A DNA stretch of 64,000 nt from Cyathus striatus (lineage: Eukaryota > Basidiomycota > Agaricomycetes > Agaricales > Nidulariaceae). Under the pieces are notes generated by a model. That model was not told the DNA's origin and made no database searches. It saw only the letters and a list, made by a program, of their open reading frames with translations. The position numbers and the translations under genes were made by a program. Of the stretch, positions 12,279 to 59,826 are shown piece after piece; the first letter of the stretch is position 1; the number at the start of each line of letters is the position of its first letter. Where the stretch lies: contig JAOVFP010000013.1 of NCBI GenBank assembly GCA_025738555.1, forward strand, positions 1,550,001 to 1,614,000. The letters run 5' to 3'.

Positions 12279-12383
12279 CATAAGTGCCAGCCATTCTGAT
12301 CATATAACAGCAGTGTTATATGATTGCCCCAATCGAATAAGCCATGCTATTTTATGATTGGGATCATAAACAATCATTGAGGT

Positions 12384-13149
12384 TGTTATATCCATGTCCG
12401 GATACATCGTGCCGACGTTCCCACGTGACCTTCTAACATACCCGGTCCATTCCCGGAACGTACCCGCTTCGGGTTTACACTTCCCGACGTTCCCGCCCGG
12501 GAACGTACCCGGAACCCGTCGGGTTTTCTATCGGATACTTCGGATACGTACTTTCTCTTATGACGGCCTCACCGCGTCATCATTCTATTACTCCTCTCTT
12601 CCATTCCTACTTATACGTTTCATTATGGCCTTTGTAGATTAGTTCCTTATTCTTCATTCTGAGCGCGTCATTTGCGCCCCTACTCCGCTTTGCCAAGACT
12701 TCATTTCCTACTTACTCCTTTGACTTGTCCTTTGTATAATACTTCTACATTCGTATCTACAGGTTCCTACTTAGTATAAGTAGTCTTCCAGATGTAATAG
12801 GTAGTCTTTAGTATTCGTATCAACTCTGTACACTTTCTTCCTACTCTAAGTTCCGAAACCCGCTCCGGGTTTTCCTTCGGGTTTCTCTCCCACTACCTAG
12901 TGTAGTGGCGAAGCCTTCTCTTATACTCTGGAACGTCTTCCTTGGTTACATATCATCTTCCTCGAAATACGAACCATTCCCTGGGGATATCCAGGCGGCG
13001 CAGCACACAAGCTGAAGCCACGGTTCTTTCCGCACTCCCGCTCTACGTTTCCGCACCCGTACTCACTTCGGGTTTCCGTTATAGTTCTCCCACACCCTCC
13101 GGGTGTCTTCGCAACCACTTCTAAACAGGAAGAGAATCGGTACGTAACA
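12384..13149 (+). repeat. 5' LTR of the Gypsy element
   Basis: TGTTATATCC...CGTAACA, collinear with 19229-19992. Differences seen: one extra C in the CCCC run near 12679, one extra C near 12854, and A versus G near 13124. Confidence 0.95.
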
Positions 13150-13185
13150 GTATACGAATACTGATACCTTGGATATCTCTTTATC

Positions 13186-14451
13186 ATGGCTCCAACTGGG
13201 ACTTCGGTTACTCGCACAGCGCATACCGCTAGTCATACCAATGCTGTGGGTGCTCGTGCCACCCGTGCAGCTACGAGGCAACAGCCTCCACGGAGTACTT
13301 CAGGTTCTCTACCTTCTACACCGTCTCGGGTTACACCCAGCCCAGCACCACCTCCTAGTGCTACTTTCCTGGGTCCACCCTCGACTTCCGCTCAGCTACT
13401 TTCTGTTCCTGCAGCCGGGAACCTCGGATCTGCTCAGGCTCCTCCGGATGGCACTCCACCGCCATACGGTACAGTCGCAGCAGACCGGGACACTCCCGAG
13501 GGTCACGGCTCTGATGGTGGTACCATTGGACCGCCACCTCCACCTCCTTCTCAGCCCAATCCTCCGTCTCCACCATCCTCAGACTCAGGGGATGATGGTG
13601 ATGAGGATGATGTCGACAATCCCAGGCGCACACCTCTTGCGCGCCACTCCCGGGAAGACCGGCTTGCCGAAGCTCTTTTGAGAGTTGCGGAATCCGCCCG
13701 GGGTACATCGGGAACACGTCGGGAACGCAACGTTCAAAAGCCAGATACTTTTGATGGTTCCAGTGCTGAGAAGTTGGAGCAGTTCATTACTCAATGCCAA
13801 ATTTACTTCCGGAATAATCCTTCCCAATACTCGGATGGACACTCCCAAGTCAACTTCGCTCTCGCATATCTTCGGGATACCGCGCTTCAGCTCGTTATGC
13901 CGACCCTCTCCAATCCCTATGCTGATGATGAGTTCCTTCACTCTTGGGAGGTTTTCGTCGTCATGCTAGAGGATAACTTCGGGTTAGCGAACCCGGAAGG
14001 GGATGCCGAGAATGATCTGGATGTCCTTGTTATGAAGGATTCACAGAAACTGTCCAAGTATCTTGTACAGTTCAACAGGCTTGCACAGCGCACCGACTGG
14101 GATGATAAGTCCTTATGCCACCGACTCTATTCCGGGTTTCCGGGTCGCATTAAGGATGAGATCTCTCATGTTGGGAAACCTACCACAAAGCGCGGGATGA
14201 TTAAACTAGCTCAAGGGATCGATAGTCGGTACTGGGAACGCCAGTCCGAGCGTACGCGGGAATCCCACCAGCCTCGGGGTCCGCGGGTTCCGGATAGCTC
14301 TGTTAGAGCTACTACAAACCGCCCGCAGTCACCCCGGCGCCTTCCCGCCTCGTTTCGGGCCAATATGCACCTCGTCCGAGCTATCCCCACCGTGCTGGTA
14401 GTCACCCACCTCGTTCCTCGCAGCCTCCCCAACAGCGGAGGCCGGAATTGA
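13186..14451 (+). CDS. Gag-like structural polyprotein of the Gypsy element
   Basis: This 421-codon frame starts 37 bp after the 5' LTR. The first 170 or so residues are Pro/Ser/Thr-rich; residues of about 190-350 match the retrotransposon gag domain (FDGSSAEKLEQFITQCQIYF onwards, with the LxxYLVQFNRLAQRTDW helix). The zinc knuckle expected at the end lies in another frame (14448 onwards), so the last 30 or so residues here are probably out of frame after a single-base indel between 14.34 and 14.45 kb. Confidence 0.85.
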   Translation: MAPTGTSVTRTAHTASHTNAVGARATRAATRQQPPRSTSGSLPSTPSRVTPSPAPPPSATFLGPPSTSAQLLSVPAAGNLGSAQAPPDGTPPPYGTVAADRDTPEGHGSDGGTIGPPPPPPSQPNPPSPPSSDSGDDGDEDDVDNPRRTPLARHSREDRLAEALLRVAESARGTSGTRRERNVQKPDTFDGSSAEKLEQFITQCQIYFRNNPSQYSDGHSQVNFALAYLRDTALQLVMPTLSNPYADDEFLHSWEVFVVMLEDNFGLANPEGDAENDLDVLVMKDSQKLSKYLVQFNRLAQRTDWDDKSLCHRLYSGFPGRIKDEISHVGKPTTKRGMIKLAQGIDSRYWERQSERTRESHQPRGPRVPDSSVRATTNRPQSPRRLPASFRANMHLVRAIPTVLVVTHLVPRSLPNSGGRN

Positions 14452-17400
14452 ATGACAAGGTTGGTCGAGATGGCAAACTTTTGCCACAAGAACGTCAGCG
14501 TCGCATGGACAACAATCTATGCTTGTTCTGCGGTAATCCGGGGCATCGCGCCAAAGAATGTCCCCGCTCTGCCTCTTCCGCGGCTAGAGCCCGGGCATCC
14601 GGAATATCCGCTTCGGCTCCTACGTCGGCTTCTGCGGGTCCCTCGACCCGCAGGTCCGCGCCTCTTTCCAACCCGGCTTCGGGTTCGAAAAATAGGGAGC
14701 GGTCCTCTGGACACCACACAAGCCGAGGACCGCGTTGTTCCCCCCCTTGTGCGCAGCCGATGCAGGTAAGACTCAACGCTTCCGCTCTTTCCGACCCCAA
14801 TGCCCTTCATATTCCACTTTGTAGTACCATCCATGCTCTCCCTACACCCTGTACAGTTTCATATAGCGCTCTAGTCGATTCGGGTTCTACCCATTGTTTT
14901 ATGGATTCATCTTTCGTTCGGACACATGCTATTCCTACCTCACCTACTCCACCTATCGCTCTCAGACTTTTCGATGGCACCACCAATCATGTTATAACCG
15001 AGTTCGTTACACTGCCTGTACTATTCCCTACCGGTGAATGTATTACAGTCGAACTCTATGTGACACCTCTTGATTCCGTGTGTTCTGCAGTCCTAGGATA
15101 CAATTGGCTCACCCGCTTCAATCCGTTGATTGACTGGGTATCGGGCTCATTAACATTCCGGACTCCAGACACTTCCGAGCAACTTCCGCTCAAATCCGGG
15201 ATCTCGGAACCAGGTTCCGCTTCCGAGGATCCATCTCCGGTCACCTCTGATGAGTCTCTGCCACCTCCTCCTAGCATTTCGCTAATAAATGGTGCCGCCT
15301 TCTCGCGTGCATGCCGTTTAGAGGAGCACAGACTTTCCGTATCCAGCTTGGTGCTGTCGCTTCCGCCGCTGCCCTCAATCCAGAGGAAGCTCCGGATCTC
15401 TCTTCAATACCGTCTGAGTATCACGAGTTTGCTGATGTATTTAGCAAGTCCCGGGCAGATACACTTGCCCCTCACCGTCCCTACGACTTAAAGATCAACC
15501 TAGAAGAAGGTGCTTCACCTCCTGTAGGTCGGATCTATTCCCTTTCCCAATCCGAGCTTTCTGCTCTTCGGGAATTCATCGATGAACATATCCGGATCGG
15601 ATTTATTCAACCTTCACGCTCTCCGCACGGAGCTCCCGTCCTTTTTGTCCGCAAGAAGGACGGATCGCTTCGGCTTTGTGTGGATTTCCGCGGGTTGAAC
15701 GCTATTTCTAAAAAGGATCGTTATCCTTTGCCACTCATTTCAGATTTGCTCGACAGTCCCCGTCGCGCCCGTATCTACACCAAGATCGACCTACGTCATG
15801 CGTACCACCTGGTCCGCATTGCCGAGGACGATGAATGGAAAACCGCTTTCCGGACTCGCTATGGATCCTTCGAATGGCTAGTCATGCCCTTCGGACTTTC
15901 CAATGCACCGCGGGTTTCCAACGCTTCATGAACGATGTTTTCAAAGACCTTCTTGATGTGTGCGTCATAGTTTATTTGGATGACATCCTTATATACTCTG
16001 ATAACCTTGCGCAACATCGCCAACATGTCAGGGAAGTTTTGCGTCGACTCCGGAAGCACGGGTTGTACGCGCGCGCGGATAAGTGTGAGTTCCACTCGGA
16101 ATCCGTGGAATATCTCGGATATATACTATCGCCCAACGGTCTCACCATGTCTCCAACAAAGGTGAAGACTATTCAAGAATGGCCGGAACCAAGGAAAGTA
16201 AAAGACATTCAATCCTTCCTTGGGTTCGCTAATTTCTATCGGCGTTTTATATACAACTATTCCGACATAGTTGTTCCGCTCACCCGCCTTACCCGGAAGG
16301 GTAATCCGTGGAACTTCTCGGAAAAATGCCGTTCCGCTTTCACTGAACTTAAGGACGCTTTCACGTCGGCACCCATTCTTACCCATTGGGTTCCCGACAA
16401 GCAGCTCATCGTGGAAACCGACGCTTCGGATTACGCGTTGGCTGCTATCCTGTCTATAGTTTCTGATGATGGCGAGATTCACCCTATCGCTTTCCACTCA
16501 CGAACCTTTACACCTCCCGAGTTAAACTACGACACCCACGACAAGGAATTGCTTGCTATCTTCGAAGCATTCCAAGTCTGGCGTCATTACCTGGAAGGTT
16601 CCGGTTCACCCATCGATGTCGTCACAGACCACAAGAACTTGGAATACTTTTCCACAACCAAGATCTTGTCCCGACGACAAGCCCGATGGTCCGAGTATCT
16701 TTCCCAGTTCAATCTAGTGATCCGCTTTCGACCCGGAAAACTCGGGGCGAAGCCGGATGCTCTGACTAGACGATGGGACGTCTACCCTAAAGAGGGGGAT
16801 AGCGACTACGCTAAGGTCAATCCGCATAACTATCGTCCAGTGTTCACCCAGGAACAGCTTATCACTTCTCTCCGAGCAACCTCACTTATTGTACCTGCTC
16901 TTCGCGCTAGTATCATCATGGACATTGAACAGTTACATACTGACATATTATCAGCTCTCCCTAATGACCCGGTCGCAGTTATCCGAATGCGGACTCCCGA
17001 GAATCGTTGGACTGTAACCCCGGACGGTTTCCTCCGTCTAGATAACCGGATCTATGTTCCGGACTCCGGAACCCTTCGGCTTCGGGTTTTACAGTACAAA
17101 CACGACCACCCGCTTTCAGGACACCTTGGACAGAACAAGACCCTCGAGCTAATTCGACGCGAATATACTTGGCCGCTTATACGGACGTTTGTAAAGGACT
17201 ATTGTAAGTCTTGTAATACTTGCATGCGTTCTAAACCACAGCGCCACCGCCCGTACGGAACCCTGAAACAACTTCCGGTTCCCGGACGCCCATGGCATTC
17301 GATATCTATGGATTTCATAGATCAACTTCCAAAATCATCGGCTTCCAAGTATGATTCTATACTCGTTATCGTGGATCGTTTCTCCAAGCAGTCTATCTTC

Positions 17401-18392
17401 ATTCCCACTCATACCACTTGCTCTTCTTCCGACCTTGCGCTTCTATTTGTACTTCATGTCTTTTCCAAGCACGGAGTCCCGGAACACATCACTTCCGATC
17501 GTGGTTCCGAGTTTGTGTCACATTTCTTCCGCTCCTCGGTACGGCCCTCGACATCACTTTACATTTCACCTCGGGTTATCATCCCGAAGGCGACGGCCAA
17601 ACGGAACGCACAAACCAAACTCTGGAACAATACCTTCGGGCCTACTGCAACTACCAGCAGGATAACTGGTGTGATCTCTTACCTCTTGCTGAATTTGCTT
17701 ACAATAATGCACCGAGCGCAACCACAGGAATTTCACCGTTCTACGCAAACAAGGGTTATCACCCGAACCTTGCGATACATCCGGAACGTGATCTCACTTC
17801 CGCTCGTGCACGGCACTTCGCAGTAAACCTCGAGGAACTTCACGAGATGCTTCGGACCGAAATACTCAGTGCGCAGAAACGTTATCAAGCACCCGCCGAT
17901 GCGCGTCGCAAACCCGCACCCGCATTCCCTGTCGGGACAAAGGTATACGTTAAAGCCGAGTACTTCCGGACAACCCGACCATCCCGGAAACTTGCAGAAA
18001 AGTTCCTAGGACCTTTTGAAGTCATCGCACTTGCCGGATCGCATTCGCGTACCTTGCGCCTTCCAGAACAATTTCGTGCAGTCCACCCAGTATTCCATGT
18101 ATCCATGCTTGAACCCAATACTGAAAATACTATCCCAGATCGCATTATTCCTCCACCACCACCTGTCCAGGTTGATGGTGATATTGAATACGAGGTCTCG
18201 GAAATATTGGACTCTAAACTGGATCGTCGTTTGCGTTGCAAACTGAGGTACTACGTACGCTGGCTAGGGTATGAAGGGACAGATGAAGAGTTTTCATGGC
18301 TTCCAGCCACGGAACTGGAACACGCTACGGATATCATTGAAGAGTTCCACTCCCGCTATCCGGATAAGCCCGGCCCTACTCCTATTTCTTAA
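14452..18392 (+). pseudogene. Pol polyprotein of the Gypsy element, frameshifted
   Basis: Domains in order: CCHC knuckle CLFCGNPGHRAKEC (14520-14561); aspartic protease LVDSGSTHCFMDSSF (14872-14916); reverse transcriptase with [20 protein letters not shown] and YLDD (15974-15985); RNase H with ETDASDYAL and TDHKNLEYF; integrase zinc-binding HHCC segment (17110-17230); core motifs MDFIDQLP and TSDRGSEF; then a chromodomain (KLRYYVRWLGYEGTDEEFSW, about 18247-18306). The reading frame changes near 15310, 15910 and 17540 (segments 14448-15310, 15311-15905, 15905-17540, 17540-18392). Each break looks like a one-base loss or gain. It therefore cannot give a full product as written, in spite of near-identical LTRs. 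Confidence 0.9.
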
Positions 18393-19228
18393 ATTTCACG
18401 TTACTTATTATCCGCTTGCAGTTTCACCTTATACAAAAACCAAAAACAACGAATAACATCCAAAAAGCGAGATACAAGTACATTAATTCTTGGTAACGTG
18501 TTACGACCATTTCCATCACTCCCTCTGCGTCTGCAACTCGACCCGAGCTACTTCCACACCTTCCGACGCAATTCCGGCACCCGTCACAACTTCCTCGTAT
18601 GCATCCGGATCCCGGAGGCATTCCACGAGCAAGGTTTCAATATGGAAACATGGACAACATGCCCAGATACCTTGGAAACATCTCAGGACAACTTATCGAG
18701 TTTGCCTACCACCTGGAAATTGGCATCATGACATCTGTAACTCAACTTGATAGACTACGCTATCTTCCAATGCTTCCTGCATTTTCCCTGGCAGTTCCTG
18801 CTACTTCCGCATCCAACCCAGACCTCATCCAATATCTTCCAATCACTTCCCCATCCATTCCCAACTCTTCCGATGCTTCCAACCCAGTTCCGACACTCAT
18901 CTCAGTCGGATATACAATCGGCAGTGCAACTAAGCTTGCCGCATTACCGGAACATCCGGAACGAATGGCTACCAGTGGATTATTGATGCACATGTCCTTC
19001 CACATCCATGGACAGTGTTAATAGGTCTCGGGTTCAGCTACGACTTGCTGGAACTTACTCAGGAACTTGTAGTTCACACCTTTGCTACTTCCCTTGCCAA
19101 AGGAATCAGATGCGCTCTCTTTCTCTTATTTGAACATCTACTGACCAATAGGATTTCTCGTATTATTTTTAGTTATATTTTCTCGCACACAGTATGACCT
19201 CGTGGGCTCGGCCCTAAAAGGGGGATAC
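18393..19228 (+). other. 3' untranslated part of the Gypsy element
   Basis: Lies between the pol stop and the 3' LTR. The open frame 18599-19021 (140 codons) has no recognisable domain. The polypurine tract AAAAGGGGGA sits at its end. Confidence 0.6.
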
Positions 19229-19992
19229 TGTTATATCCATGTCCGGATACATCGTGCCGACGTTCCCACGTGACCTTCTAACATACCCGGTCCATTCCCG
19301 GAACGTACCCGCTTCGGGTTTACACTTCCCGACGTTCCCGCCCGGGAACGTACCCGGAACCCGTCGGGTTTTCTATCGGATACTTCGGATACGTACTTTC
19401 TCTTATGACGGCCTCACCGCGTCATCATTCTATTACTCCTCTCTTCCATTCCTACTTATACGTTTCATTATGGCCTTTGTAGATTAGTTCCTTATTCTTC
19501 ATTCTGAGCGCGTCATTTGCGCCCTACTCCGCTTTGCCAAGACTTCATTTCCTACTTACTCCTTTGACTTGTCCTTTGTATAATACTTCTACATTCGTAT
19601 CTACAGGTTCCTACTTAGTATAAGTAGTCTTCCAGATGTAATAGGTAGTCTTTAGTATTCGTATCAACTCTGTACACTTTCTTCCTACTCTAAGTTCGAA
19701 ACCCGCTCCGGGTTTTCCTTCGGGTTTCTCTCCCACTACCTAGTGTAGTGGCGAAGCCTTCTCTTATACTCTGGAACGTCTTCCTTGGTTACATATCATC
19801 TTCCTCGAAATACGAACCATTCCCTGGGGATATCCAGGCGGCGCAGCACACAAGCTGAAGCCACGGTTCTTTCCGCACTCCCGCTCTACGTTTCCGCACC
19901 CGTACTCACTTCGGGTTTCCGTTATAGTTCTCCCACACCCTCCGGGTGTCTTCGCAACCACTTCTAAGCAGGAAGAGAATCGGTACGTAACA
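19229..19992 (+). repeat. 3' LTR of the Gypsy element
   Basis: Direct repeat of 12384-13149, followed by the second copy of the GAGGT target duplication. Confidence 0.95.
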
Positions 19993-20590
19993 GAGGTTCT
20001 AATTGAATACTACTATTGTATGAATGTATTAAATGATCATAAGCAATCATTGATTGTTTCTAATTGGATATTACTATTGTATGGATGGTTAGGTGATCAT
20101 AAACAATCACTGGATTGTTTTTAATTGAATACTACTATTGTATGAATGTATTAGGTGATCATAGACAATCATTGATTTATCTAATTGAATACTACTATTG
20201 TATAGATGCATTGGGTGATCATAGGCAATCATTGAAGTTCTAAATCAATATTACTATTGTATGAATGTATTAAGTGATGATAAACAATCATTGATGTTTT
20301 CTAATCCAATATTAATATTGAATGGTGGTGAGGCAATCATAAACAATCATTGATTTTTTCTAATTGAATATTATTATTGTATGAATGGTGAGGTGATCAT
20401 AAACAATCATTAATTTTTACTAATTGAATATTAGTATGAATGGATAGGCAATCATAAGCAATCATTGATCTTTTCTAATTGAATATTATTATTGTATGGA
20501 TGGTGAGATGATCATAAACAATCATTAATTTTAATAATTGAATATTAGTATGGATGGTTAGGCAATTATTAGCAATCATTGGCTATTGTA
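19993..20590 (+). repeat. Subterminal tandem units, left arm of element 1
   Basis: About ten diverged units of roughly 55-62 bp. Each has an AATTGAATATTA-like part, an ATTGTATGAATGG-like part and the core GATCATAAACAATCATTGA. The mirror copy is at about 24030-24780 in opposite orientation. Confidence 0.8.
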
Positions 20591-21616
20591 TGGATTTGTC
20601 ACATTTCCTCACATGTCACACATCTTCCCGCGCGTCACATATTTCCCGCATGTCACGTTTTTCATGCACGTCACGTTAGTCACATATATTCCCACGTGTC
20701 ACGTTCGTCTCGCGCGCGTCACAATTGTCACGTATATTCCCGCGCTTCATGTTAGTCACGCGCGTCACATTTTCCTCACGCGTGACGATTGTCACACATA
20801 TTCCCGCGCCTCACATATTTCCCGCGCATCACATATTTCCCACGCATCACATATTTCACGCACGTCACGTTCGTCACATATATTCCCACGCATCACATCT
20901 GTCACATTCTTCCCGCCCGTCACGTCTGTCACGCATATTCCCGCGCATCACGTTCGTCACACATTTATCACAATTTTCACGCGCGTCACGTCTGTCACAA
21001 TTCTCCCACACTATGCATATATCACACTTGTCACGCTTTAGCGCGTTTGTCACGCTTTAGCGCGTTTGTCACGCTTTAGCGCGTTTGTCACGCTTTAGCG
21101 CGTTTGTCACGCTTTAGCGCGTTTGTCACGCTTTAGCGCGTTTGTCACGCTTTAGCGCGTTTGTCACGCTTTAGCGCATTTGTCATGCTTTGTATGCGCG
21201 TCACGCGTCACGTTTGTCACGTTCTTTATGAGCGTTACGCTTTTATGCATGTCACATGTGTCACGTCTTTGAGGCGCGTCACACATTACATTTGTCATAT
21301 TCTTTATGAGCCTTTTATGCATGTCACACATGTCACGTCTTTGAGGCGCGTCACGCCGTGACAATCTGACATTCTTTCGCGCGTCACATATGTCACATAC
21401 ATTCTCGCATGTCACAATTGTCACATATATTCCCGCGCTTCATGTTAGTCACGCTTTTCACGCGCGTCACGCTTTTCATGTGTGTCACGCGCGTCACATT
21501 CGTCACACTTTTAGCGCTCGTCACACTTTTCACATTCTTACATTTGTCATGCTTTGAAATATTGCCTTTCTTGGGTATTAATCTTTTGATTCACATTACA
21601 TGTCCTATGTGTGTCA
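20591..21616 (+). repeat. GTCAC-rich zone, left arm of element 1
   Basis: TGTCAC or close variants recur every 10-20 bases, often beside CGCGCG, TTCCCGCGC or ACATATATT. Translated frames across it (for example 20586-21041) are repetitive and mirrored in the right arm, so they are not genes. The last part (21540-21616) is less repetitive and ends the palindrome. Confidence 0.8.
21027..21183 (+). repeat. 19-bp tandem array (about 8 copies)
   Basis: Unit GTCACGCTTTAGCGCGTTT repeated head to tail about eight times, the last copy slightly changed. The mirror array in the right arm has about 13 copies. Confidence 0.9.
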
Positions 21617-22912
21617 TTACATTTCTCAAAGCATTACATTTGTTATGCTTTGTAAGTATAACACTTGTCATGCTCTTAGTATAGGGTTGCAAATTGAAAA
21701 CTATATTAATAGATGGATACTCAGCAATAGTATGTCCATGGACCACTTCCTGATGCTGTCTGAGTTGCTATCTGATTCATTCTGCCAGTAGTCATATGCT
21801 TACCACAAAGATTAAGCCATGCATGTACAAGGATAAGCAACATTTATCAGAGACATCAATACATACAGCAGTATAGAAGTGAACCTGATTGACATGGAAG
21901 AAGTTTCTGGGTTGAAGGAAATTCTAAGACAAAGAATTTGTGAGTTGATAGCACATCCATATATCCACAGGTACTAGCAAGGGAAAGTCACCTCTATTTA
22001 ATGAATGTAGTGTTCTGTACTTAAATATGTACAGAACAATGGTAGTGAGCTGAGTATCAAAAAGAGAAATAAGCCCAATTCTATGGTACAGGCAATCTGC
22101 CTGCTCCACATTGTGACACAATATCAGTAAGAGTGGAGATAGTTTACATTACCTCTCTGTATCAATAAAGCAAACTGTCATGTAGTTATATAGAGTAAGC
22201 AGATATGCAACTCAATAATGTGTATTGAAGATATCAGTATAACCAATAGTGATACAAGAATCATGATCATCTAATAACTGAGATGTGTAAGTTTGATGTG
22301 ATGTAGAGTTACATAGTTCAATACCATTATATCATATCTCTAGTCTTGATTGTAAAATGTCAATGAACTTACATACACACTACATTTTTCATTCTAGTTG
22401 CTTCTTACTGTTTGACTTCCATAATTTACTAATTGTAATATCCCATGTTATAACCTTCAATTTAGCAAGAACATATTTGTTTCCTTGCTTTAATAATTTA
22501 TTCTGCAGTTTTGGATACTTCTGTTCTGTAATGTGAACAAAGATATAGATATACAGGTAACCAGACACATATAACTGGCTCAAGTGGTTATATCTTATGA
22601 AAGATAAATAAAGTTGAAATATTCTACATGTCATAATAAGTTCCAGAAATCTTTTGATCTTATGAAATATGCACAAAATGTGACAAATGAGATGTATATT
22701 GAGAACATGACAAACTTGACATGTGACTTGCATCAAAAACATACTGCAAATGAAAACCATGATAGGATAATAGTGGATAACAAGTGATATGCTGAGTATT
22801 CCCCACTTCACATAGTTTCAAATTTAGATATGTTGTCAATATCAAAGGCCAAATTAGATTACTGAGCTGTGAAAATTGTGGCCAATGTAACATGTGAAAA
22901 GAGCATGATGAG
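21617..22912. other. Unique centre of element 1
   Basis: About 1.3 kb of AT-rich single-copy sequence between the palindrome arms. Only short frames without motifs (for example 22389-22811 minus). No transposase, RNA gene or promoter recognised. Confidence 0.6.
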
Positions 22913-24845
22913 TGACACACATAGGACATGTACTGTGAATCAAAAGATTAATACCCAAGAAAGGCAAGATTTCAAAGCATGACAAATGTAAGAATGTGAA
23001 AAGTGTGACGAGCGCTAAAAGTGTGACGAATGTGACGCGCGTGACACACATGAAAAGCGTGACGCGCGTGAAAAGCGTGACTAACATGAAGCGCGGGAAT
23101 ATATGTGACAATTGTGACATGCGAGAATGTATGTGACATATGTGACGCGCGAAAGAATGTCAGATTGTCACGGCGTGACGCGCCTCAAAGACGTGACATG
23201 TGTGACATGCATAAAAGGCTCATAAAGAATATGACAAATGTAATGTGTGACGCGCCTCAAAGACGTGACACATGTGACATGCATAAAAGCGTAACGCTCA
23301 TAAAGAACGTGACAAACGTGACGCGTGACGCGCATACAAAGCATGACAAATGCGCTAAAGCGTGACAAACGCGCTAAAGCGTGACAAACGCGCTAAAGCG
23401 TGACAAACGCGCTAAAGCGTGACAAACGCGCTAAAGCGTGACAAACGCGCTAAAGCGTGACAAACGCGCTAAAGCGTGACAAACGCGCTAAAGCGTGACA
23501 AACGCGCTAAAGCGTGACAAACGCGCTAAAGCGTGACAAACGCGCTAAAGCGTGACAAACGCGCTAAAGCGTGACAAACGCGCTAAAGCGTGACAAGTGT
23601 GATATATGCATAGTGTGGGAGAATTGTGACAGACGTGACGCGCGTGAAAATTGTGATAAATGTGTGACGAACGTGATGCGCGGGAATATGCGTGACAGAC
23701 GTGACGGGCGGGAAGAATGTGACAGATGTGATGCGTGGGAATATATGTGACGAACGTGACGTGCGTGAAATATGTGATGCGTGGGAAATATGTGATGCGC
23801 GGGAAATATGTGAGGCGCGGGAATATGTGTGACAATCGTCACGCGTGAGGAAAATGTGACGCGCGTGACTAACATGAAGCGCGGGAATATACGTGACAAT
23901 TGTGACGCGCGCGAGACGAACGTGACACGTGGGAATATATGTGACTAACGTGACGTGCATGAAAAACGTGACATGCGGGAAATATGTGACGCGCGGGAAG
24001 ATGTGTGACATGTGAGGAAATGTGACAAATCCATACAATAGCCAATGATTGCTAATAATTGCCTAACCATCCATACTAATATTCAATTATTAAAATTAAT
24101 GATTGTTTATGATCATCTCACCATCCATACAATAATAATATTCAATTAGAAAAGATCAATGATTGCTTATGATTGCCTATCCATTCATACTAATATTCAA
24201 TTAGTAAAAATTAATGATTGTTTATGATCACCTCACCATTCATACAATAATAATATTCAATTAGAAAAAATCAATGATTGTTTATGACTGTCTCTCCATT
24301 CATACTAATATTCAATTAGTAAGGATCAATGATTGTTTATGATCACCTCACCATTCATACAATAATAATATTCAATTAGAAAAAATCAATGATTGTTTAT
24401 GATTGCCTCACCACCATTCAATATTAATATTGGATTAGAAAACATCAATGATTGTTTATCATCACTTAATACATTCATACAATAGTAATATTGATTTAGA
24501 ACTTCAATGATTGCCTATGATCACCCAATGCATCTATACAATAGTAGTATTCAATTAGATAAATCAATGATTGTCTATGATCACCTAATACATTCATACA
24601 ATAGTAGTATTCAATTAAAAACAATCCAGTGATTGTTTATGATCACCTAACCATCCATACAATAGTAATATCCAATTAGAAACAATCAATGATTGCTTAT
24701 GATCATTTAATACATTCATACAATAGTAGTATTCAATTAGAACCTCAATGATTGTTTATGATCCCAATCATAAAATAGCATGGCTTATTCGATTGGGGCA
24801 ATCATATAACACTGCTGTTATATGATCAGAATGGCTGGCACCCCT
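22913..24845 (-). repeat. Right arm of element 1 (inverted copy of the left arm)
   Basis: Reverse complement of 12279-12383 plus 19993-21616. The inner edge TGACACACATAGGACATGTA pairs with the left arm near 21597-21616. The arm reads GTGACA-rich zone (to about 24030), then mirrored 60-bp units, then the subterminal hairpin and terminus. Confidence 0.9.
23346..23596 (-). repeat. 19-bp tandem array, right arm (about 13 copies)
   Basis: GTGACAAACGCGCTAAAGC repeated head to tail, the reverse complement of the array at 21027-21183 but with about five more copies. Confidence 0.9.
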
Positions 24846-24853
24846 CTGATGCC
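24846..24853. repeat. Right target-site duplication of foldback element 1
   Basis: CTGATGCC, the partner of 12271-12278. Confidence 0.8.
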
Positions 24854-24990: not shown

Positions 24991-24999
24991 ATCAATACC

Positions 25000-26289: not shown

Positions 26290-27912
26290 ACGATCACCTC
26301 AAGTTGTTCGACTTACTTGATTGCTGCCCACCCACACAGATGACCAAACCATGGCCCCTCCAAATCCTAACCACATCAAACAATATCCAAGCCCTCGCAC
26401 ATACACTCCGAGGCATCCCGTGCGAAACGAGCGGTTTAGTCTGGGCAAGTCCCCTCGATGTCCTCGATGTGAGAGGGAATAAGTTGGGCGTTTTATATAT
26501 TTTGTGAGCTCTTTCGTTCGGTTTTGAAAGGGGGGTTAAAAGAGACTGATGAGAATGGGATAGGTGCGCACAGTTGAGTGTTTCTGGTGCTTTGCCCCCT
26601 CGTTGGGAAGTCCTAGAAGAGGTTTGTAACAATTATTATGTTGAGCGGGCGAGAGCTGCTCCTGATCGTGGTTTGTCCCCTACCTTCTTTCTCTCTTCCT
26701 ACTCATACTAAGAAAGACTAGTTCTGGCACTGGTAAAGCAATTGAAAAAGCGACATATGAAGCTGGTGTCGTACGTCCCTCTCCTCTTCCCCCTTGGTAT
26801 ACACTAACGACATGAAAAGCCACAACAAGCCCTCCCCCTCCTCATCTCCCTCCTCCGCATCTACCCTCCACCGATCCTCACCCCCGTCCACCCTCTCATT
26901 CTCAAAACGTCGCTAACAACCCGAATCCTTCCACCGTCCTCCTGCTCCTCTCACCAAACACAATCTCCAGCATCTCAGGAGACATAAGCGTCATAGACGT
27001 CCTCACATACTTCTACCTGGGCGGAATGATATTGGCCTGCATGCAAAGGTAGGAAGAGGCGGAAGATACGATGGAGTATGTTATTTTGGTACCTGGGTAT
27101 CCTAGTGCGATACAGTTGGAAGCTGTGAAGAAGCATAGGTTATTTGGGTTGATTGTTAGAGGGAAGGTGTGTTCTCTTTCCCTTTTTCTTTCGAAGCTAC
27201 GAACTCGCTAACGCTCACTCTTAGCCAAATCACCTCCCAAAACCAACTCACCCCCTCCTCCCGCGTCTCCTCAAACAAACACCCTATGCAGCCCTTATAT
27301 CCTCATACTCCTCCTACCCGACCCTCATCCAGCTTCTACAGCAACACCACCAGCTCTTCGCAGCCAAAAAGAATCTGGGGCTGGTTAAGAAGGTCGTGGA
27401 TCTCGCGAAAGTATGGAGCGGAAAAAGCTGATGGGGACGTATGTCATGCTTGAGTTGGAGGAGTTTGGACGGGTTGTTGTTGGTGAGGGGGAGGGGGGAC
27501 AAGAAGGGGAGGGGGAGGGGATGGGAGAGGAGGAAGTTAGGGAGTTGATTTTGAGTATGGTTCGTGTCTTTCCCTCTCCTTCCCTCTTTTTCTTCCTTCC
27601 TTTCGCCCTTTTCCTCCTTTTTTTTTTCGTTCTTTCGTTCAAAGGCTCACTCCGTTTGCCAACAGATAGACCAAAATATCCTCCACGCACAATTCATAAC
27701 ACCAACCACAGTATCCTTCTCTGAGCCACGTCCGGCGTTCTCAAAAGCGGACGTGGATAGGGTTCTGAGGGATGTCCAGAGATGTTGGCGCTTTTGGATG
27801 GGGAGGTTGGGGCGGGCAGGGAGTTTTTGAGTAAGGTGAACTGCGATATCTTTGTGGGGAGAGGGGGATAGAAGGTTGAGGGGGTTGTGGTCGTGCGTAG
27901 TTGAAGAGCTTG
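26290..27912 (+). pseudogene. csn3: COP9 signalosome subunit 3 gene (csn3), 5' and central exons, truncated
   Basis: The only csn3 copy here with upstream exons. Near 26430-26500 it reads LDVLDVRGNKLGVLYIL, comparable with LGALDVQEHSLGVLAVL of animal CSN3; then PRWEVLEEVC (26594-26623). At 26975-27170 comes YFYLGGMILACMQR followed by EEAEDTMEYVILVPGYPSAI and a KKHRLFGLIVRGK helix, matching the YYYGGMIY region of the family. Then KKNLGLVKKVVDLAKVW (27368-27418), a segment INQ-like IDQNILHAQF, and the C-terminal part FSKADVDRVLRDVQ (27741-27782). CSN3 is a PCI-domain subunit of the complex that removes Nedd8 from cullins. Defects: TAG at 27050 where tryptophan is likely, frame changes near 26920 and 27790, and the last intron is cut by element 2. 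Confidence 0.65.
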
Positions 27913-27930
27913 AGTGGTGTCAGCCATCGT

Positions 27931-27991
27931 GATCATTTTTTGCCCTGGTAAAATGATTGCCACAATCATTTTACCAGGGCAAAAAATGATC
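27931..27991. repeat. Perfect subterminal hairpin, left
   Basis: A 29-bp stem starting GATCATTTTTTGCCCTGGTA with a 3-nt loop. The same hairpin recurs at 31140-31200. Confidence 0.95.
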
Positions 27992-27999
27992 GCTTAGGC

Positions 28000-28420
28000 G
28001 ATCAAATGTGATCATTTACCATAGAACTAGCAGAATATTACTATGCTCAAATGTGATCATTTACTATAATACTAGCAGAATATTCCCATGCTCAAATGTG
28101 ATCATTTACATAGAACTAGCTAATTGCTCACGCTCAAATGTGATCATTTACTATAATACTAGCAGAATATTCCCATGCTCAAATGTGATCATTTACATAG
28201 GACTAGCTGATTGCTCACGCTCAAATGTGATCATTTACTATAATACTAGCAGAATATTCCCACGCTCAAATATGATCATTTATGATAATACTAGCAGAAT
28301 ATTCCCATGCTCAAATATGATCATTTATGATAATACTAGCAGAATACTCCCACGCTCAAATATGATCATTTATGATAATACTAGCAGAATATTCCCACGC
28401 TCAAATGTGATCATTAGGTC
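28000..28420 (+). repeat. 45-bp subterminal tandem units, left arm of element 2
   Basis: About ten units of AAATGTGATCATTTACTATA, ATACTAGCAGAATATTCCCA and CGCTC, mirrored at 30530-31120. Confidence 0.9.
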
Positions 28421-28439
28421 ATGCAGGTGGCATAATAGG

Positions 28440-28960
28440 TTGTTCATGTATGTCACATTGTGTCACACTGTGTGACATATGTGACATATGTCACACTTTA
28501 CACATGTCACACATTGTCACAAACATTATATTTTGTCACATGTCACACTTTTTGACACGTAACATTTTGTCACACATTTCGATATGTCACACATGTCACA
28601 CATTTAAACACGTCACACATTGTCACACATGTCACACTTTTTCACCACATGTCACACTTTTTGACATGTCACATTTTGTCACACACATCACACTTTTAGA
28701 TATGTCACACATTTAAACACATCACACATTGTCACACATGTCACACTTTTAGACACGTCACATTTTGTCACACACATCACACTTTTACATATGTCACATT
28801 TTATCATGTATATCACACTCTTACATATATTACACATTTACATATGTCACATATTCCACATTTGTCTTGTTGTTTATAGCTGTCACACTTAGCTGTCAAA
28901 CTTCTCACATTTGCTTGTATAATACTCCTGTCATGTAGTCACATAGGTTACATTTCCAGA
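28440..28960 (+). repeat. GTCACA-rich zone, left arm of element 2
   Basis: Dense TGTCACACTTT, ACATGTCACAC and related words without the CGCG content of element 1. Mirrored at 29990-30510. Confidence 0.85.
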
Positions 28961-29060
28961 TTCATGTTATACAACATCTGTTACAACCATTATATTCATC
29001 ACACATGTTACATATTCCAACACATCACATTTATTCACATTTTGTTCACATGTCACACAT

Positions 29061-29889
29061 CTCTCATTTGTAATACTGTACCATTTAAATGAGTTTGAAA
29101 TAGGCAAAATGTTGACATCATTTGATGCTTTCTGACATGTGACTGTCAAATTATTAAAATGGTAAATTTATCACAAGTTGCATTTTCACAGTATTATGTT
29201 AGTCAGACATCTCATATATGTCACATTTTATGTTTCAAAATCTGATGGTAAATGTGATGAAATGATCACACAGCAGATATTTGCAATTCTGTAACAATGA
29301 AAATTGAACAGTAGTGAGCACTGTTAAGAGAGACACAAGAAATCATATAGCCCATTGGTTAGTCAAGAAAAACATCTGATTGACTGATAGAAAGTGTGAC
29401 AAAGATATAAGTAATGTGACAATAGAAGTAATAATTGAATGGAAGATATAGATATGTCAACATAACCAGACCAGATAACATGTGATGAAGATACAGAATA
29501 CATATTAAGGTTAGTTAGACAAAATTAGTATCTAAGTACAGTTATGTCTACTATAGAATCTGACTGTCTTATTAAAACATAACATTGTGATTACCAGAAA
29601 GTAGTGTTGACACAATGTGATTTCAGCTTAGTGCTATGAATGCTGAATTCAACCAATACAGGTAAACAGTAAGAGAAAATGTGATTTTCATAAAGTAGTC
29701 AAGTGCCTTTGCCATATAATTTGTAATGTGCATGAACTTAGTGAGCACCTTTCATGTGACATGTGTGATGTGTGTAGGGTCTGTGTGACTGTTGGGTGTG
29801 CAAATGAAAGTAAAAATGCAATTTTATTTTTTGACAAGGAGAAAGTACCATAACAAGCAAGTGATATGAGAAGGAAGTGTGATATGTGT
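29061..29889. other. Unique centre of element 2
   Basis: AT-rich and single copy between the arms; only short motif-free frames. Borders are approximate because the palindrome decays gradually. Confidence 0.5.
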
Positions 29890-31139: not shown

Positions 31140-31200
31140 GATCATTTTTTGCCCTGGTAAAATGATTGTGGCAATCATTTTACCAGGGCAAAAAATGATC
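31140..31200. repeat. Perfect subterminal hairpin, right
   Basis: A 61-bp hairpin matching 27931-27991, with loop TGG in place of CCA as expected for the mirrored arm. Confidence 0.95.
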
Positions 31201-31218
31201 ACGATGGCTGACACCACT

Positions 31219-51253: not shown

Positions 51254-53803
51254 CATAAGTGTCAGCCAATTTGATCGCAAATTGCTCAGGAAAAATGAGT
51301 GCTAGTGATCCTGATTCTCCACCAAAAAAATGAGTGCCATTTTTATAAGGCATATTCAGTAAATGTAATGGAGTGGTGATCATTGGCACTCATTTATGTA
51401 TTGCTATTGACAACTAGGGGATTATATTAGTATAGTATGAGGACACTCAAAAGTGATCATTTTAGGAATATTAGAAGATGATCATTGGCACTCATTTATA
51501 TATTGTTGTTGATTACTAGGGAACTATATTAGTATAGTATGGAGGCACTCAAAAGTGATCATTTTGAGAGCATTAGCAGGTGATCATTGGCACTCATTTA
51601 TGTATTATGATTTATTACTAGGGGATAGTATTAGTATAGAATGAGGGCACTCAAAAGTGATCATTTAATGAATATTAGGAGGTGATCACTGGCACTCATT
51701 TATGTATTGTTGTTGATTACTAGGGAACTATATTAGTATAGTATGGAGGCACTCAAAAGTGATCATTTTGAGAGCATTACGAGGTGATCATTGGCACTCA
51801 TTTATATATTATGGTTTATTACTAGGGGATAGTATTAGTATAGAATGAGGGCACTCAAAAGTGATCATTTAATGAATATTAGGAGGTGATCATTGGCACT
51901 CATTTATGTATTTGCTATTACTGATTACTAGTTGATCTGCGCTTCGCATATTTCCCACGCTTGCATTTGTCACATACTTCCCGCGTGTCACGTTCGTCAC
52001 ACATATTCCCGCGCCTCATATTTTCCCGCGCATCGCACTTGTCACATACTTCACGCGCGTCACGTTGGTCACATATATTCCCGCGCCTCGTGTTTTTCCC
52101 GCGCATCACATCTGTCACGTACTTCACGCGCGTCACGTTCGTCACACATATTCCCGCGCATCACATCTGTCACGTGCTTCACGCGCGTCACGTTTGTCAC
52201 ACATATTCCCGCGCTTCATATTTGTCACGTACTTCACTGTCACGTCTGTCACAATTCTCCCACACTATGCATATATCACACTTGTCACGCTTTAGCGCGT
52301 TTGTCACGCTTTAGCGCGTTTGTCACGCTTTAGCGCGTTTGTCACGCTTTAGCGCGTTTGTCACGCTTTAGCGCGTTTGTCACGCTTTAGCGCGTTTGTC
52401 ACGCTTTAGCGCGTTTGTCACGCTTTAGCGCGTTTGTCACGCTTTAGCGCGTTTGTCACGCTTTAGCGCGTTTGTCACGCTTTAGCGCGTTTGTCACGCT
52501 TTAGCGCGTTTGTCACGCTTTAGCGCGTTTGTCATGCTTTGTATGCGCGTCACGCGTCACGTTTGTCACGTTCTTTATGAGCGTTACGCTTTTATACATG
52601 TCACATGTGTCACATCTTTGAGGTGCGTCACACATTACATTTGTCATATTCTTTGACACATGTGACATGTATAAAAGCGTAACGCTCATAAAGAACGTGA
52701 CAAACGTGACGCGTGACGCGCATACAAAGCATGACAAACGCGCTAAAGCGTGACAAACGCGCTAAAGCGTGACAAGTGTGATATATGCATAGTGTGGGAG
52801 AATTGTGACAGACGTGACAGTGAAGTACGTGACAAATATGAAGCGCGGGAATATGTGTGACAAACGTGACGCGCGTGAAGCACGTGACAGATGTGATGCG
52901 CGGGAATATGTGTGACGAACGTGACGCGCGTGAAGTACGTGACAGATGTGATGCGCGGGAAAAACACGAGGCGCGGGAATATATGTGACCAACGTGACGC
53001 GCGTGAAGTATGTGACAAGTGCGATGCGCGGGAAAATATGAGGCGCGGGAATATGTGTGACGAACGTGACACGCGGGAAGTATGTGACAAATGCGAAGCG
53101 TGGGAAATATGCGAAGCGCAGATCAACTAGTAATCAGTAATAGCAAATACATAAATGAGTGCCAATGATCACCTCCTAATATTCATTAAATGATCACTTT
53201 TGAGTGCCCTCATTCTATACTAATACTATCCCCTAGTAATAAACCATAATATATAAATGAGTGCCAATGATCACCTCGTAATGCTCTCAAAATGATCACT
53301 TTTGAGTGCCTCCATACTATACTAATATAGTTCCCTAGTAATCAACAACAATACATAAATGAGTGCCAGTGATCACCTCCTAATATTCATTAAATGATCA
53401 CTTTTGAGTGCCCTCATTCTATACTAATACTATCCCCTAGTAATAAATCATAATACATAAATGAGTGCCAATGATCACCTGCTAATGCTCTCAAAATGAT
53501 CACTTTTGAGTGCCTCCATACTATACTAATATAGTTCCCTAGTAATCAACAACAATATATAAATGAGTGCCAATGATCATCTTCTAATATTCCTAAAATG
53601 ATCACTTTTGAGTGTCCTCATACTATACTAATATAATCCCCTAGTTGTCAATAGCAATACATAAATGAGTGCCAATGATCACCACTCCATTACATTTACT
53701 GAATATGCCTTATAAAAATGGCACTCATTTTTTTGGTGGAGAATCAGGATCACTAGCACTCATTTTTCCTGAGCAATTTGCGATCAAATTGGCTGACACC
53801 ACT
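51254..53803. mobile_element. Giant foldback element 3, inserted in the KDZ-like gene
   Basis: Left end CATAAGTGTCAGCC, right end GGCTGACACCACT, with 8-bp duplications. 2,550 bp, nearly all palindrome: arms 51254-52612 and 52654-53803, centre only 41 bp. Arm order: terminus, hairpin CAATTTGATCGCAAATTG, about five units of some 100 bp with GGTGATCATTGGCACTCATT and AGTGATCATTTT, then a TTCCCGCGC/GTCAC zone, then the 19-bp array. Elements 1 and 3 share the inner GTCAC zone and array almost word for word but differ in the outer units. No gene inside. Removal of the element and one duplication restores an open frame in the host gene. Confidence 0.9.
52283..52535 (+). repeat. 19-bp tandem array, left arm of element 3 (about 13 copies)
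   Basis: GTCACGCTTTAGCGCGTTT about 13 times; the mirror position in the right arm (52737-52775) holds only about two copies. Confidence 0.9.
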
Positions 53804-53811
53804 CCGATCTC
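53804..53811. repeat. Right target-site duplication of element 3
   Basis: CCGATCTC, the partner of 51246-51253. Confidence 0.9.
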
Positions 53812-57130: not shown

Positions 57131-57189
57131 AGGAGATCGGTCGTCAGTGTTGTTGTATCATATTGTGTCTACTGTGTCTACTGTACAGT

Positions 57190-58742
57190 TCTGGTGATGT
57201 AATAAATGTAGAATATCTTGCCTCCTACCGCCACCTTGTTGAGATGACAGAAGGTTAGTCTCATCGTGCTTGTTCCAAATGCTGACTCATCAGTTGGTGT
57301 GTGAAATTTGAAAGCATAAAATAACACGGTTATCACATTTGTCAACATATGTCATATACCATCAATCATGGGAAATCTAGTCTACATGCACCACTTCTAC
57401 CTCATTAACGTAGATCATCTATTTCACCATTAGAAACGTAGGATAGACTGGAGCCGTTCAGAGAGATGTAGATATTGCTTAATATATATTTTTCATAAGA
57501 TAAAGTCAGATAATGTGCTGATGTGTATGAAACATTTAAAAATAAATAACTTGCCTCCTTCTGCCACATTCACCAAATAACAGAAAGCTAGTCTCATTGC
57601 ACTGGTTTTAAATGCTGACTCATCTGTTCTTTATCTGAATGCTCCGGACAAATATCACACGGTAATCATCATACCGTTAATTCATTTGTCCGCATATGTC
57701 ATATAACATTAATTATGGTGCATCCAGTCTACATGTGCTACTTTTACCTCATTAATGTAGATCCTCTACTTCTTTATAATAAAAATAAGATACACTGGTG
57801 CCATTCGAATATACGTAGATATTTCACAATATCTTGCTACATAAGATAAAGCTAGGTCCCTATAATGCACAAATAAATGCGACAAATAAAATATGAAAAT
57901 ATTGTCTCCTTCCGCCACATTCACCAGATGACAGGAATCTAGTCTCGTCGCGCTGCGTTTATGTGCTGACTCCTGTGTCATTTGAAAACACAAAAAAGAT
58001 CCCCATAATGCACTAATAAATGCGAAAATTAAAAATGAAGATCTTGCCTCCTTCCGCTACATTCACCAGATGACAGGAATCTAGTTTCGTCGTGCTGGTT
58101 TTAATTTCCGATGCATCTGTCATTCTCAGAACGCGGAAAACAAATATCCCATGCATATCACTTCTGTCTGCATATGGCACATCCCATCAATCATAGGATA
58201 TCCAGTCTATATGCACCATTTCTACCTCATTAATTTACATCCCCTATTTTGCTATTATAAATGTAGGATATGCATGATCCTTTAAGATAAATGTAGATAT
58301 ATCACAATATACCTATTCCATATGATAGATCCCTATAATGCACTAATAAATGCGATAAATTACAAATGAAGATCTTACTTCCTTCCGCCACATTCATCAG
58401 ATGACAGGAATCTAGTCTCATCGCGCTGCATTCATGTGCTGACTCGTGTGTCATTTTCAGAATGTGGAAAACAAATATCCCACGCCTATCACTTCTGTCC
58501 GCCTATGGCACATCCCATCAATTAAGGTAAATCCAGTCTACATGCACCACTTCTACCCCTTTAATTTACATCCTCTACTTTTCAATTATAAATGTAGGAT
58601 ATTCACGGTCCATACAGATAGATGTAGATATTTCAGAATATACCTCTTTCATATGATAGATCCCCATAATGCATGAATAAATGCAAAAAATTAAACTTGA
58701 AAATCTTGCCTCCTTCCGCTACAATCATCATATGACAGGAAT
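57190..58742 (+). repeat. 331-bp satellite array, right
   Basis: Landmarks CTAGTCTC or close variants at 57255, 57588, 57939, 58081 and 58412 (spacings 332, 351, 142 for a partial unit, 331). Words such as CCTTCCGCCACATTCACCAG and AGTCTACATGCACCACTTCT are the reverse complement of the left array. Element 4 interrupts the last unit. Confidence 0.85.
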
Positions 58743-59826
58743 CATAAGTGCCAGCCATTCTGATCATATAACAGCAGTGTTATATGATTGCCCCAATCGA
58801 ATAAGCCATGCCTTTTTATGATTGGGATCATAAACAATCATTGAGGTTCTAATTCAATACTACTATTGTATGAATGTATTAAATGATCATAAGCAATCAT
58901 TGATTGTTTCTAATTGGATATTACTATTGTATGGATGGCTAGGTGATCATAAACAATCACTGATTGTTTTTAATTGAATACTACTATTTTATGAATGTAT
59001 TAGGTGATCATAGACAATCATTGATTTATCTAATTGAATATTAGTATGAATGGAGAGGCAATCCTAAACAATCATTGATTTTTCTAATTGAATATTATTA
59101 TTGTATGAATGGTGAGGTGATCATAAACAATCATTAATCCTTACTAATTGAATATTAGTATGAATGGAGAGACAATCATAAACAATCATTGATTTTCTCT
59201 AATTGAATATTATTATTGTATGGATGGTGAGGTGATCATAAACAATCATTGATTTTTTCTAATTGAATATTATTATTGTATGAATGGTGAGGTGATCATA
59301 AACAATCATTAATCCTTACTAACTGAGTATTAGTGTGAATGGAGAGACAATCATAAACAATCATTGATTTTTTCTAATTGAATATTATTATTGTATGGAT
59401 GGTGAGGTGATCATAAACAATCATTGATTTTTACTAATTGAATATTAGTATGGATGGTTAGGCAATCATAAGCAATCAATGATAACTACTAATTGGATAT
59501 TGCTACTGTATGGATTTGTCACATTTCCTCACATGTCACAATTGTGACACATCTTCCCGCGCGTCACATATTTCCCGCACGTCACGTTAGTCACATATAT
59601 TCCCGCGTATCACGTTCGTCTCGCGCGTCACAATTGTCACATATATTCCCGCGCTTCATATTAGTCACACGTGTCACGCTTTTTATGCATGTCACAATTG
59701 TCACATATATTCCCGCGCTTCATGTTAGTCACGTGCGTTACATTTTCCTCACGCGTCACGATTGTCACACATATTCCCGCGCCTCACATATTTCCCGCGC
59801 ATCACACATTTCCCACGCGTCACATA
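58743..59826. mobile_element. Foldback element 4, left arm only
   Basis: Begins CATAAGTGCCAGCCATTCTG like element 1 and continues through the same subterminal hairpin, about eleven 60-bp GATCATAAACAATCATTGA units and a GTCAC zone (from 59516). It breaks off at about 59826 (CACGCGTCACATAA) before any 19-bp array. No right arm follows, so it is truncated. The insertion point is inside a satellite unit (after ACAGGAAT). Confidence 0.8.

What the first reader, a model, noticed from the sequence alone, without database searches (positions are those of the whole stretch)
12279..59826. A family of giant modular foldback elements with one architecture
Seen: four elements (12279-24845, 27913-31218, 51254-53803, 58743-59826) share the terminal core GTGYCAGCC. 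Reading inwards each has the same order: terminus, subterminal hairpin, tandem units containing GATCAT (60, 45, 100 and 60 bp), then a zone saturated with TGTCAC/GTGACA, then a short or unique centre. The outer units differ in sequence between elements 1, 2 and 3 while the plan is kept. Known: foldback and MITE-like elements with long inverted repeats exist, and 8-bp duplications are typical of hAT elements. Inference: a non-autonomous family mobilised in trans, with module swapping between subfamilies. I do not recall a described fungal family with this plan.
Basis: partly seen in the sequence, partly recalled or inferred. Interest (0 to 1): 0.88.

Follow-up and report, generated by a model that had tools for sequence, protein, structure and literature searches.

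The report
Foldback passengers of KDZ jumping genes
Four repeat-filled, hairpin-like DNA elements are best explained as gene-less passengers of a known class of large jumping genes (KDZ transposons): they carry the same end sequences and the same 7-letter insertion scar, and some share inner parts with otherwise unrelated copies.

Summary
The window holds three two-ended foldback elements and one truncated left arm. Element 1 is about 4.95 kb: 7.6 kb of its '12.5 kb' is a nested LTR retrotransposon with its own 5-bp duplication. The ends are asymmetric, left CATAAGTGYCAGCC and right GAGKGGTGYCAGCC, and the target duplication is 7 bp (24 of 32 left-right pairs). The two end patterns match 741 places in the genome (reversed-pattern controls 5). 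The same ends and GATCAT units bound 17-19 kb elements with a KDZ (Kyakuja-Dileera-Zisupton) transposase match inside, two of them in element 1's own subfamily and with 7-bp duplications. So these are non-autonomous foldback derivatives of a KDZ lineage, probably Kyakuja-like. Further points: both arms of a copy share private variants although the outer 5 bp differ; like-ended pairs (LL, RR, including window element 2) showed no duplication (0 of 12); some inner TGTCAC zones are shared between elements whose outer arms do not align. No coding partner was found for element 2's subfamily, and none of this was tested at the bench. Drosophila Galileo is the closest parallel. New variant of a known kind.

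The parts
12279..24846 (+). Element 1 (W1): L-R foldback of 4,954 bp plus nested retrotransposon; 7-bp duplication TGATGCC
12384..19992 (+). Nested LTR retrotransposon, Ty3-type by its RT-RNase H-integrase order (not part of the foldback); LTRs about 12384-13150 and 19229-19992, duplication GAGGT
19997..20581 (+). Element 1 left arm, 60-bp GATCAT tandem units (continuation after the retrotransposon)
20597..21616 (+). Element 1 left TGTCAC zone
22913..24043 (-). Element 1 right TGTCAC zone (inverted)
24043..24763 (-). Element 1 right arm, 60-bp GATCAT units
24833..24846 (-). Element 1 right end GAGGGGTGCCAGCC (followed inwards by the left-type C at position 18)
27912..31219 (.). Element 2 (W2): foldback with two right-type ends (RR), 45-bp units, no target duplication
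51254..53804 (+). Element 3 (W3): L-R foldback 2,551 bp, 102-bp units, arms 99.8% alike over 1,074 nt, duplication CGATCTC
58743..59826 (+). Element 4 (W4): truncated left arm only, W1 subfamily (99% to the copy at C1:7941008 in outer 316 nt and inner zone), flush with the edge of a 331-bp satellite array

Best explanation
These are non-autonomous foldback elements mobilised in trans by transposases of the KDZ superfamily, probably a Kyakuja-like lineage. A standard copy has a left end CATAAG..., a right end GAGKGG..., a subterminal hairpin, GATCAT tandem units, and an inner TGTCAC zone that the two coding elements read in full lack. Shown: ends (and, for element 1's subfamily, the first 285-334 nt) shared with 17-19 kb elements that enclose a KDZ match; 7-bp duplications; arms of one copy sharing private variants while the outer 5 bp differ; like-ended pairs without duplications; inner zones shared across some subfamilies. 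Inferred: the KDZ protein cuts these ends; the tandem units are its binding sites and decide which transposase recognises a copy; the arms are homogenised by conversion; transposition needs one L and one R end, so LL and RR copies come from recombination between elements and not from insertion.
For: KDZ: 159 matching stretches to PF18758 in the genome, several of them parts of one gene. K1 (C3:1980708-1998016, 17.3 kb) has both ends, duplication TCTACAC, 69-bp GATCAT arrays in both arms and the main KDZ match starting 3.75 kb from R. A 17.2-kb element of another subfamily (C2:1201755-1218948) has the same order and shares protein stretches in two regions with K1. In element 1's own subfamily C7:3656083-3675290 (duplication TCAATAT, exact) and C12:3170999-3189164 (one mismatch) enclose KDZ matches; their end stretches match W1 at 86-88% over 285-334 nt. 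Of 21 KDZ loci on C1, C2 and C3 to 4.0 Mb, 6 have an L 12-16 kb upstream, 5 an R 2.5-5 kb downstream, 3 both; random placement gives 0.25, 0.1, 0.003 (maxima 3, 2, 1); strand-flipped 1, 0, 0 (distances chosen). Duplications: 24 of 32 L-R pairs (22 exact), random re-pairing mean 0.84, maximum 5; 0 of 12 like-ended; Fisher p 6e-6, 0.001 with only the six well-matched like-ended pairs, 2e-5 without the window copies. Conversion: a variant near nt 70 differs between W1, L013 and L014 but is the same in both arms of each; at position 18 W1's right end has C, where 9 of 9 other right ends of the subfamily on C1-C4 have T. Kyakuja makes 7-bp duplications (PMC12730594, section 3.2).
Against: No binding, cleavage, expression or transposition was tested. 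8 of 32 L-R pairs lack the duplication, among them the C2 coding element and a second 17.3-kb KDZ copy (one of the 8 matches if shifted by a base). 13 of 21 KDZ loci have neither end at the expected place, and two (C2:4275439, C3:697189) have a right-type end 15-17 kb away on the unexpected side. The 3' end is ..CTC, not the ..TG reported for Kyakuja, which was also described without TIRs. No coding partner was seen for element 2's subfamily (32 ends); for element 3 the link is a shared 102-bp unit type, 79% over 400 nt. Partner searches for six like-ended copies found none. Arms are not always near identical (81% and 85% in two copies), and W1's arms (97.7%) are no more alike than W1 and other copies are in their outer 292 nt (97.9%). 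The single base at position 18 could be a point mutation. The transposase was not placed on a tree; interiors of the C7 and C12 elements were not read.
Confidence: 0.87

Rival explanations
1. Non-autonomous hAT elements.
For: hAT families with 7-bp duplications (hAT7) are reported in rust fungi (PMC12730594, passage).
Against: Of 10 ORFs scanned in the coding element K1, one hits KDZ over its cut-off and none a hAT family; the 8-bp duplication is really 7 bp. A hAT family search of the genome was not run.
Confidence: 0.04
2. KDZ elements are themselves passengers: both they and the foldbacks are moved by a third transposase, for example the product of the unassigned gene region shared by K1 and the C2 element.
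For: A second region, apparently on the minus strand, is conserved between K1 and C2K (about 38-54% over stretches of 31-105 aa); the ORFs from it that were scanned have no Pfam family above cut-off, and one ORF has no database relative.
Against: KDZ is an established transposase superfamily with moving fungal members (PMC12810828, passages); where both ends were found, KDZ lies at a similar place in different subfamilies.
Confidence: 0.06
3. Arms are alike because each foldback arose recently by inverted duplication of one end, not by conversion.
For: Arms 99.8% alike over 1,074 nt in W3 and 99.3% over 960 nt in C1:2223598, against 84-95% to the nearest fetched relatives.
Against: Duplication of one end should give like-ended copies, yet facing L-R pairs outnumber LL and RR by 38 to 9. 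Where both ends were found, the arms match from nt 6 in nine of nine L-R foldbacks, so the outer 5 bp of one arm would have to be regained each time. A mixed history is possible.
Confidence: 0.25

Closest known systems
Kyakuja lineage of the KDZ superfamily (Kojima 2025, PMC12730594; abstract, section 3.2 and passages read)
   Same: KDZ transposase in full-length relatives; 7-bp duplication; 5' end starts CA
   Different: 3' end ..CTC instead of ..TG; long inverted subterminal arms although Kyakuja is described without TIRs; no TET/JBP match by PF12851 (a weak negative); no foldback derivatives in what I read of the paper
Galileo of Drosophila (P superfamily; PMC3573991 and PMC3688188, passages read)
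   Same: Foldback-like long arms with internal tandem repeats, 7-bp duplications, subfamily-chimeric copies whose flanking 7-mers do not match, repeats that bind the transposase
   Different: P-type transposase with THAP domain, not KDZ; the passages read mention no fixed left-right difference of the outermost bases and no two-zone plan
KDZ1-KDZ3 of Cryptococcus neoformans (PMC12810828, passages read)
   Same: Fungal KDZ transposons shown to move
   Different: 9-11 kb with TIRs of 139-241 bp; 8-bp (KDZ1) or 4-8-bp (KDZ2, KDZ3) duplications; no foldback passengers in the passages read
Tetris foldback of Drosophila virilis (PMC4079207, search listing only)
   Same: Foldback transposon linked to tandem repeats
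   Different: Animal element; not compared in sequence here

Membership tests
KDZ superfamily (non-autonomous member) | KDZ transposase inside elements with the same ends | tested here: met
   three facing end pairs and two enclose KDZ matches
KDZ superfamily (non-autonomous member) | Subterminal sequence shared with a coding element of the same subfamily | tested here: met
   W1: 86-88% over 285-334 nt with the C7 and C12 elements; C1:1187471 copy: 88-90% over about 305 nt with K1. For W3 only the unit type; for W2 none found
Kyakuja | 7-bp target duplication | tested here: met
   24 of 32
Kyakuja | 5'-CA..TG-3' termini, no TIRs | tested here: not met
   5' CA yes, 3' is ..CTC; inverted arms from nt 6
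Kyakuja | Transposase clusters with Kyakuja on a tree | not tested
   no reference proteins at hand
Zisupton | 8-bp target duplication | tested here: not met
   7 bp
hAT | 8-bp target duplication (usual) | tested here: not met
hAT | hAT transposase in coding relatives | not tested
   no hAT family search of the genome was run; KDZ was found in K1
Foldback-type element (structural class) | Long, internally repetitive inverted arms | tested here: met
MITE (structural class; size limit recalled) | Short, below about 0.8 kb | tested here: not met
   two-ended foldbacks are 2.55-5.35 kb

The most novel reading that the evidence does not exclude
A KDZ parasite network with a lock-and-key plan: outer arms carry the transposase address, the inner TGTCAC zone is a separate module that moves between addresses by recombination, and the outermost five bases are kept different at the two ends because the transposase demands one L and one R. 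Homogenisation of the arms is thus free up to nt 5 but would end transposition beyond it, and copies that become LL or RR are frozen scars of rearrangement.
Probability: 0.38. Interest if true: 0.7.

Novelty: new variant of a known kind. Interest (0 to 1): 0.55.

Why it matters
Foldback elements were long hard to assign to a transposase (recalled); in Drosophila the Foldback-like Galileo was later placed in the P superfamily by its transposase (PMC3688188, passage). Here a foldback family is tied to a second, unrelated superfamily, KDZ, in one genome that holds coding elements, many passengers, and natural like-ended copies that act as a ready-made test of end function. It gives a directly testable rule (one L plus one R) and suggests that long repetitive arms evolve repeatedly, perhaps because they bind transposase and recombine.

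Tried and rejected
Rejected: giant size of element 1 (nested retrotransposon). Rejected: 8-bp duplication. Tried: reciprocal partners of like-ended copies, by searching the genome for their flanking 7-mers beside the other end type. For element 2: two places matched the degenerate pattern, neither with its 7-mers. For two LL copies (13 places) and three RR copies (searches places): one exact 7-mer (ATGAAAA, C7:258126), which proved to be an ordinary L-R copy of another subfamily, so a coincidence. These searches demanded exact ends. The rearrangement origin of LL/RR copies therefore stays inferred. Tried: TET/JBP search, 0 matches, but the tool warned that nothing rang in its controls either. 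Tried: relatives of the second gene, none for one ORF. Tried: the 13.4-kb copy at C3:978787-992187 as a possible coding element; by its reading frames (read by eye, not scanned) it is a foldback with another nested LTR retrotransposon. Left unexplained: L001 and L002 bear left-end motifs but no foldback structure. Left arms L003, L004 and L009 have no TGTCAC zone by my criterion; L009 lies 12.6 kb upstream of a KDZ match, the other two were not classified. The AlphaFold and fold-search tools were not used.

Census choices: one search used 29 of the 38 L-R pairs plus W1, W3 and the C7:254595 copy, and all 9 LL/RR pairs plus three others. Six of these 12 have inner 66 nt alike at 90% or more; the others may be chance neighbours of different subfamilies. 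The end lists show only the first 100 places each, so pairing covers C1, C2 and C3 to 4.0 Mb; 77 of the 171 ends there stayed unpaired. One search scored 150 of 169 KDZ candidates and its listing was cut; I counted one locus per gene. One search printed only pairs with inner score above 120 bits.
Full report
What is in the window. GTGYCAGCC occurs seven times, each at an end of one of the four described elements. Tandem Repeats Finder gives the unit sizes claimed: 60 bp (elements 1, 4), 45 bp (2), 102 bp (3), then TGTCAC-rich arrays. TGTCAC lies mostly in the left half and GTGACA in the right half: W1 26 and 2 on the left, 1 and 33 on the right; W3 22 and 0, 3 and 13. The stretch inside each end folds better than shuffled sequence, strongly in element 2, weakly in element 3.

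Corrections. The inner part of element 1 has RT, RNase H and integrase domains (further frames from 13.2 to 18.4 kb were not scanned) between LTRs that are 99.6% alike. The insertion is 7,609 bp with duplication GAGGT and leaves a 4,954-bp foldback. Element 4 lacks a right end. Element 2 has right-type ends on both sides.

Ends and duplication. Left ends read CATAAGTGYCAGCC, right ends GAGKGGTGYCAGCC, with the leading G in 13 of 13 right ends first inspected and A in three later ones (L051 and L077; L096). The genome (107 Mb, 24 contigs, unnamed) has 419 exact left ends (1 for the reversed pattern) and 322 right ends without the leading G being asked (4). In the fully listed part 171 ends form 47 facing neighbours within 20 kb: 38 L-R, 5 LL, 4 RR. 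With flanks read, 24 of 32 L-R pairs have a 7-bp duplication (22 exact, 2 with one mismatch), against 0.84 on average (maximum 5) when flanks are re-paired at random, and 0 of 12 like-ended pairs do: Fisher p 6e-6, 0.001 with only the six well-matched like-ended pairs, 2e-5 without the window copies. Two further L-R pairs, both enclosing KDZ matches, also have it, one exact and one with a single mismatch. The 8-bp reading came from a chance eighth base in both window elements.

The coding partner. PF18758 (KDZ) has 159 matching stretches, several per gene. Of 21 KDZ loci in the fully listed part, 6 have an L, 5 an R and 3 both where K1 would predict, against 0.25, 0.1 and 0.003 for random positions and 1, 0, 0 with strands flipped. 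The distance windows were set; 13 of 21 have neither, and two have a right-type end on the unexpected side. K1, 17.3 kb, was read whole: duplication TCTACAC, hairpin at the right end (z -6.0), 23.6 and 19.6 copies of a 69-bp GATCAT unit, KDZ frames near R. C2K, 17.2 kb, has 102-bp units, a weak hairpin (z -2.0), no duplication, and shares protein stretches with K1 in two regions, the KDZ gene and an unassigned one. For element 1's subfamily (93 ends within two mismatches, control 0), two pairs of ends 18.2 and 19.2 kb apart enclose KDZ matches; their end stretches match W1 at 86-88% over 285-334 nt. Only ends and KDZ positions of these two were seen, not their interiors. Subfamilies of elements 2 and 3 have 32 and 70 ends (controls 0). 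Neither K1 nor C2K has a TGTCAC zone.

How it works. The simplest mechanism is cut-and-paste in trans by KDZ transposases. That ends and GATCAT units are what a foldback shares with coding elements of its subfamily fits a role as recognition sequence; in Galileo tandem repeats in the long arms bind the transposase (PMC3688188, passages). The TGTCAC zone, absent from both coding elements read in full, is unlikely to be essential for transposition as such.

Arms and asymmetry. In nine of nine two-ended L-R foldbacks aligned, the arms match from nt 6 inwards; identity of the longest outer match runs from 81% to 99.8%. W3 and C1:2223598 (99.8% and 99.3%) exceed their nearest fetched relatives (84-95%); W1 does not. 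Direct signs of exchange between arms: near nt 70 W1, L013 and L014 each have their own variant, the same in both arms. At position 18, right ends of the subfamily carry T in 9 of 9 other cases on C1-C4 and left ends C in 6 of 6 on C1-C3, yet W1's right end has C while keeping GAGGG; this single base could also be a mutation. In L005, L007 and L010 the two ends also differ in length by one or two bases near nt 17-20. I read the kept difference as a requirement for one L and one R end; recombination between elements would give LL and RR copies, as proposed for chimeric Galileo copies whose 7-mers do not match (PMC3573991, passages). My search for reciprocal partners failed, so this step is inference.

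Module sharing. The inner zone of W1 scores higher with W3 (79.5% over 684 nt, 594 bits) than with W1's subfamily members L013 (313 bits) and L014 (369 bits), while BLAST at E 1e-3 finds no match between the outer 316 nt of W1 and W3. W3 and C3:85376 share 95.8% over 336 nt, C1:1187471 and the C7:254595 copy 80.5% over 563 nt, again without outer match; in 20 block-shuffles each the scores reach at most 212, 235 and 202 against 594, 540 and 500. Other pairs are congruent, both zones alike (for example L013 and W4), and element 2's zone is not related to element 1's.

Known or new. KDZ transposons are known in fungi and move in Cryptococcus (PMC12810828, passages). Kyakuja has 7-bp duplications, CA..TG termini and no TIRs (PMC12730594, section 3.2). 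The present family meets the first and not the others, so I file it under KDZ and call it Kyakuja-like, not Kyakuja. Searches of the open library for foldback with transposon and basidiomycete (none), foldback element with fungi (two unrelated listings), Kyakuja with terminal inverted repeats (four) and KDZ with non-autonomous (five) listed no paper on foldback derivatives of KDZ; I read parts of three of these papers only. The 2014 paper that, as I recall, named KDZ is not held.

Noticed in passing
window 54601-55215: Fragment of a weakly scoring KDZ transposase lineage (PF18758, 28 bits) next to element 3; 11 listed genome matches have similar score and range (list cut). Its own ends were not found.
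   Followed up: partly
window 37247-39987 and 57997-58743: Arrays of a 331-bp satellite in inverted orientation about 20 kb apart, roughly 80% alike; element 4 sits flush at the edge of one.
   Followed up: no
window 34988-36719: About 95 copies of a 19-bp unit TGTGACACTATGCATTGAG, itself GTGACA-rich but not bounded by the family's ends.
   Followed up: no
window 34170-34330: Reading frame ..NEFNNPALLPMIYPTLFPYGIGGPE.. resembling the start of Helitron proteins (recalled resemblance; frame seen, not scanned).
   Followed up: no
G000 C3:1980708 and C3:2041956; C9:1745481 and C9:1778294: Pairs of left ends in inverted orientation, 61 and 33 kb apart, whose flanks are identical over at least 70 and 30 bp: inverted segmental duplications involving these elements.
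   Followed up: partly
L001, L002: Left-end motifs attached to non-foldback DNA that is 87-96% alike in stretches and holds F-box-like reading frames (recalled label); unexplained.
   Followed up: partly
C3:978787-992187 (L108, L113, L114, L109): A second foldback with a different LTR retrotransposon (by its frames, not scanned; no DNA match to the one in element 1) in its left tandem zone, as in element 1.
   Followed up: partly
K1 about 4.4-7.2 kb (L031): Second conserved gene region of the KDZ elements; no Pfam family above cut-off in the ORFs scanned, no database relative for the ORF tried.
   Followed up: partly
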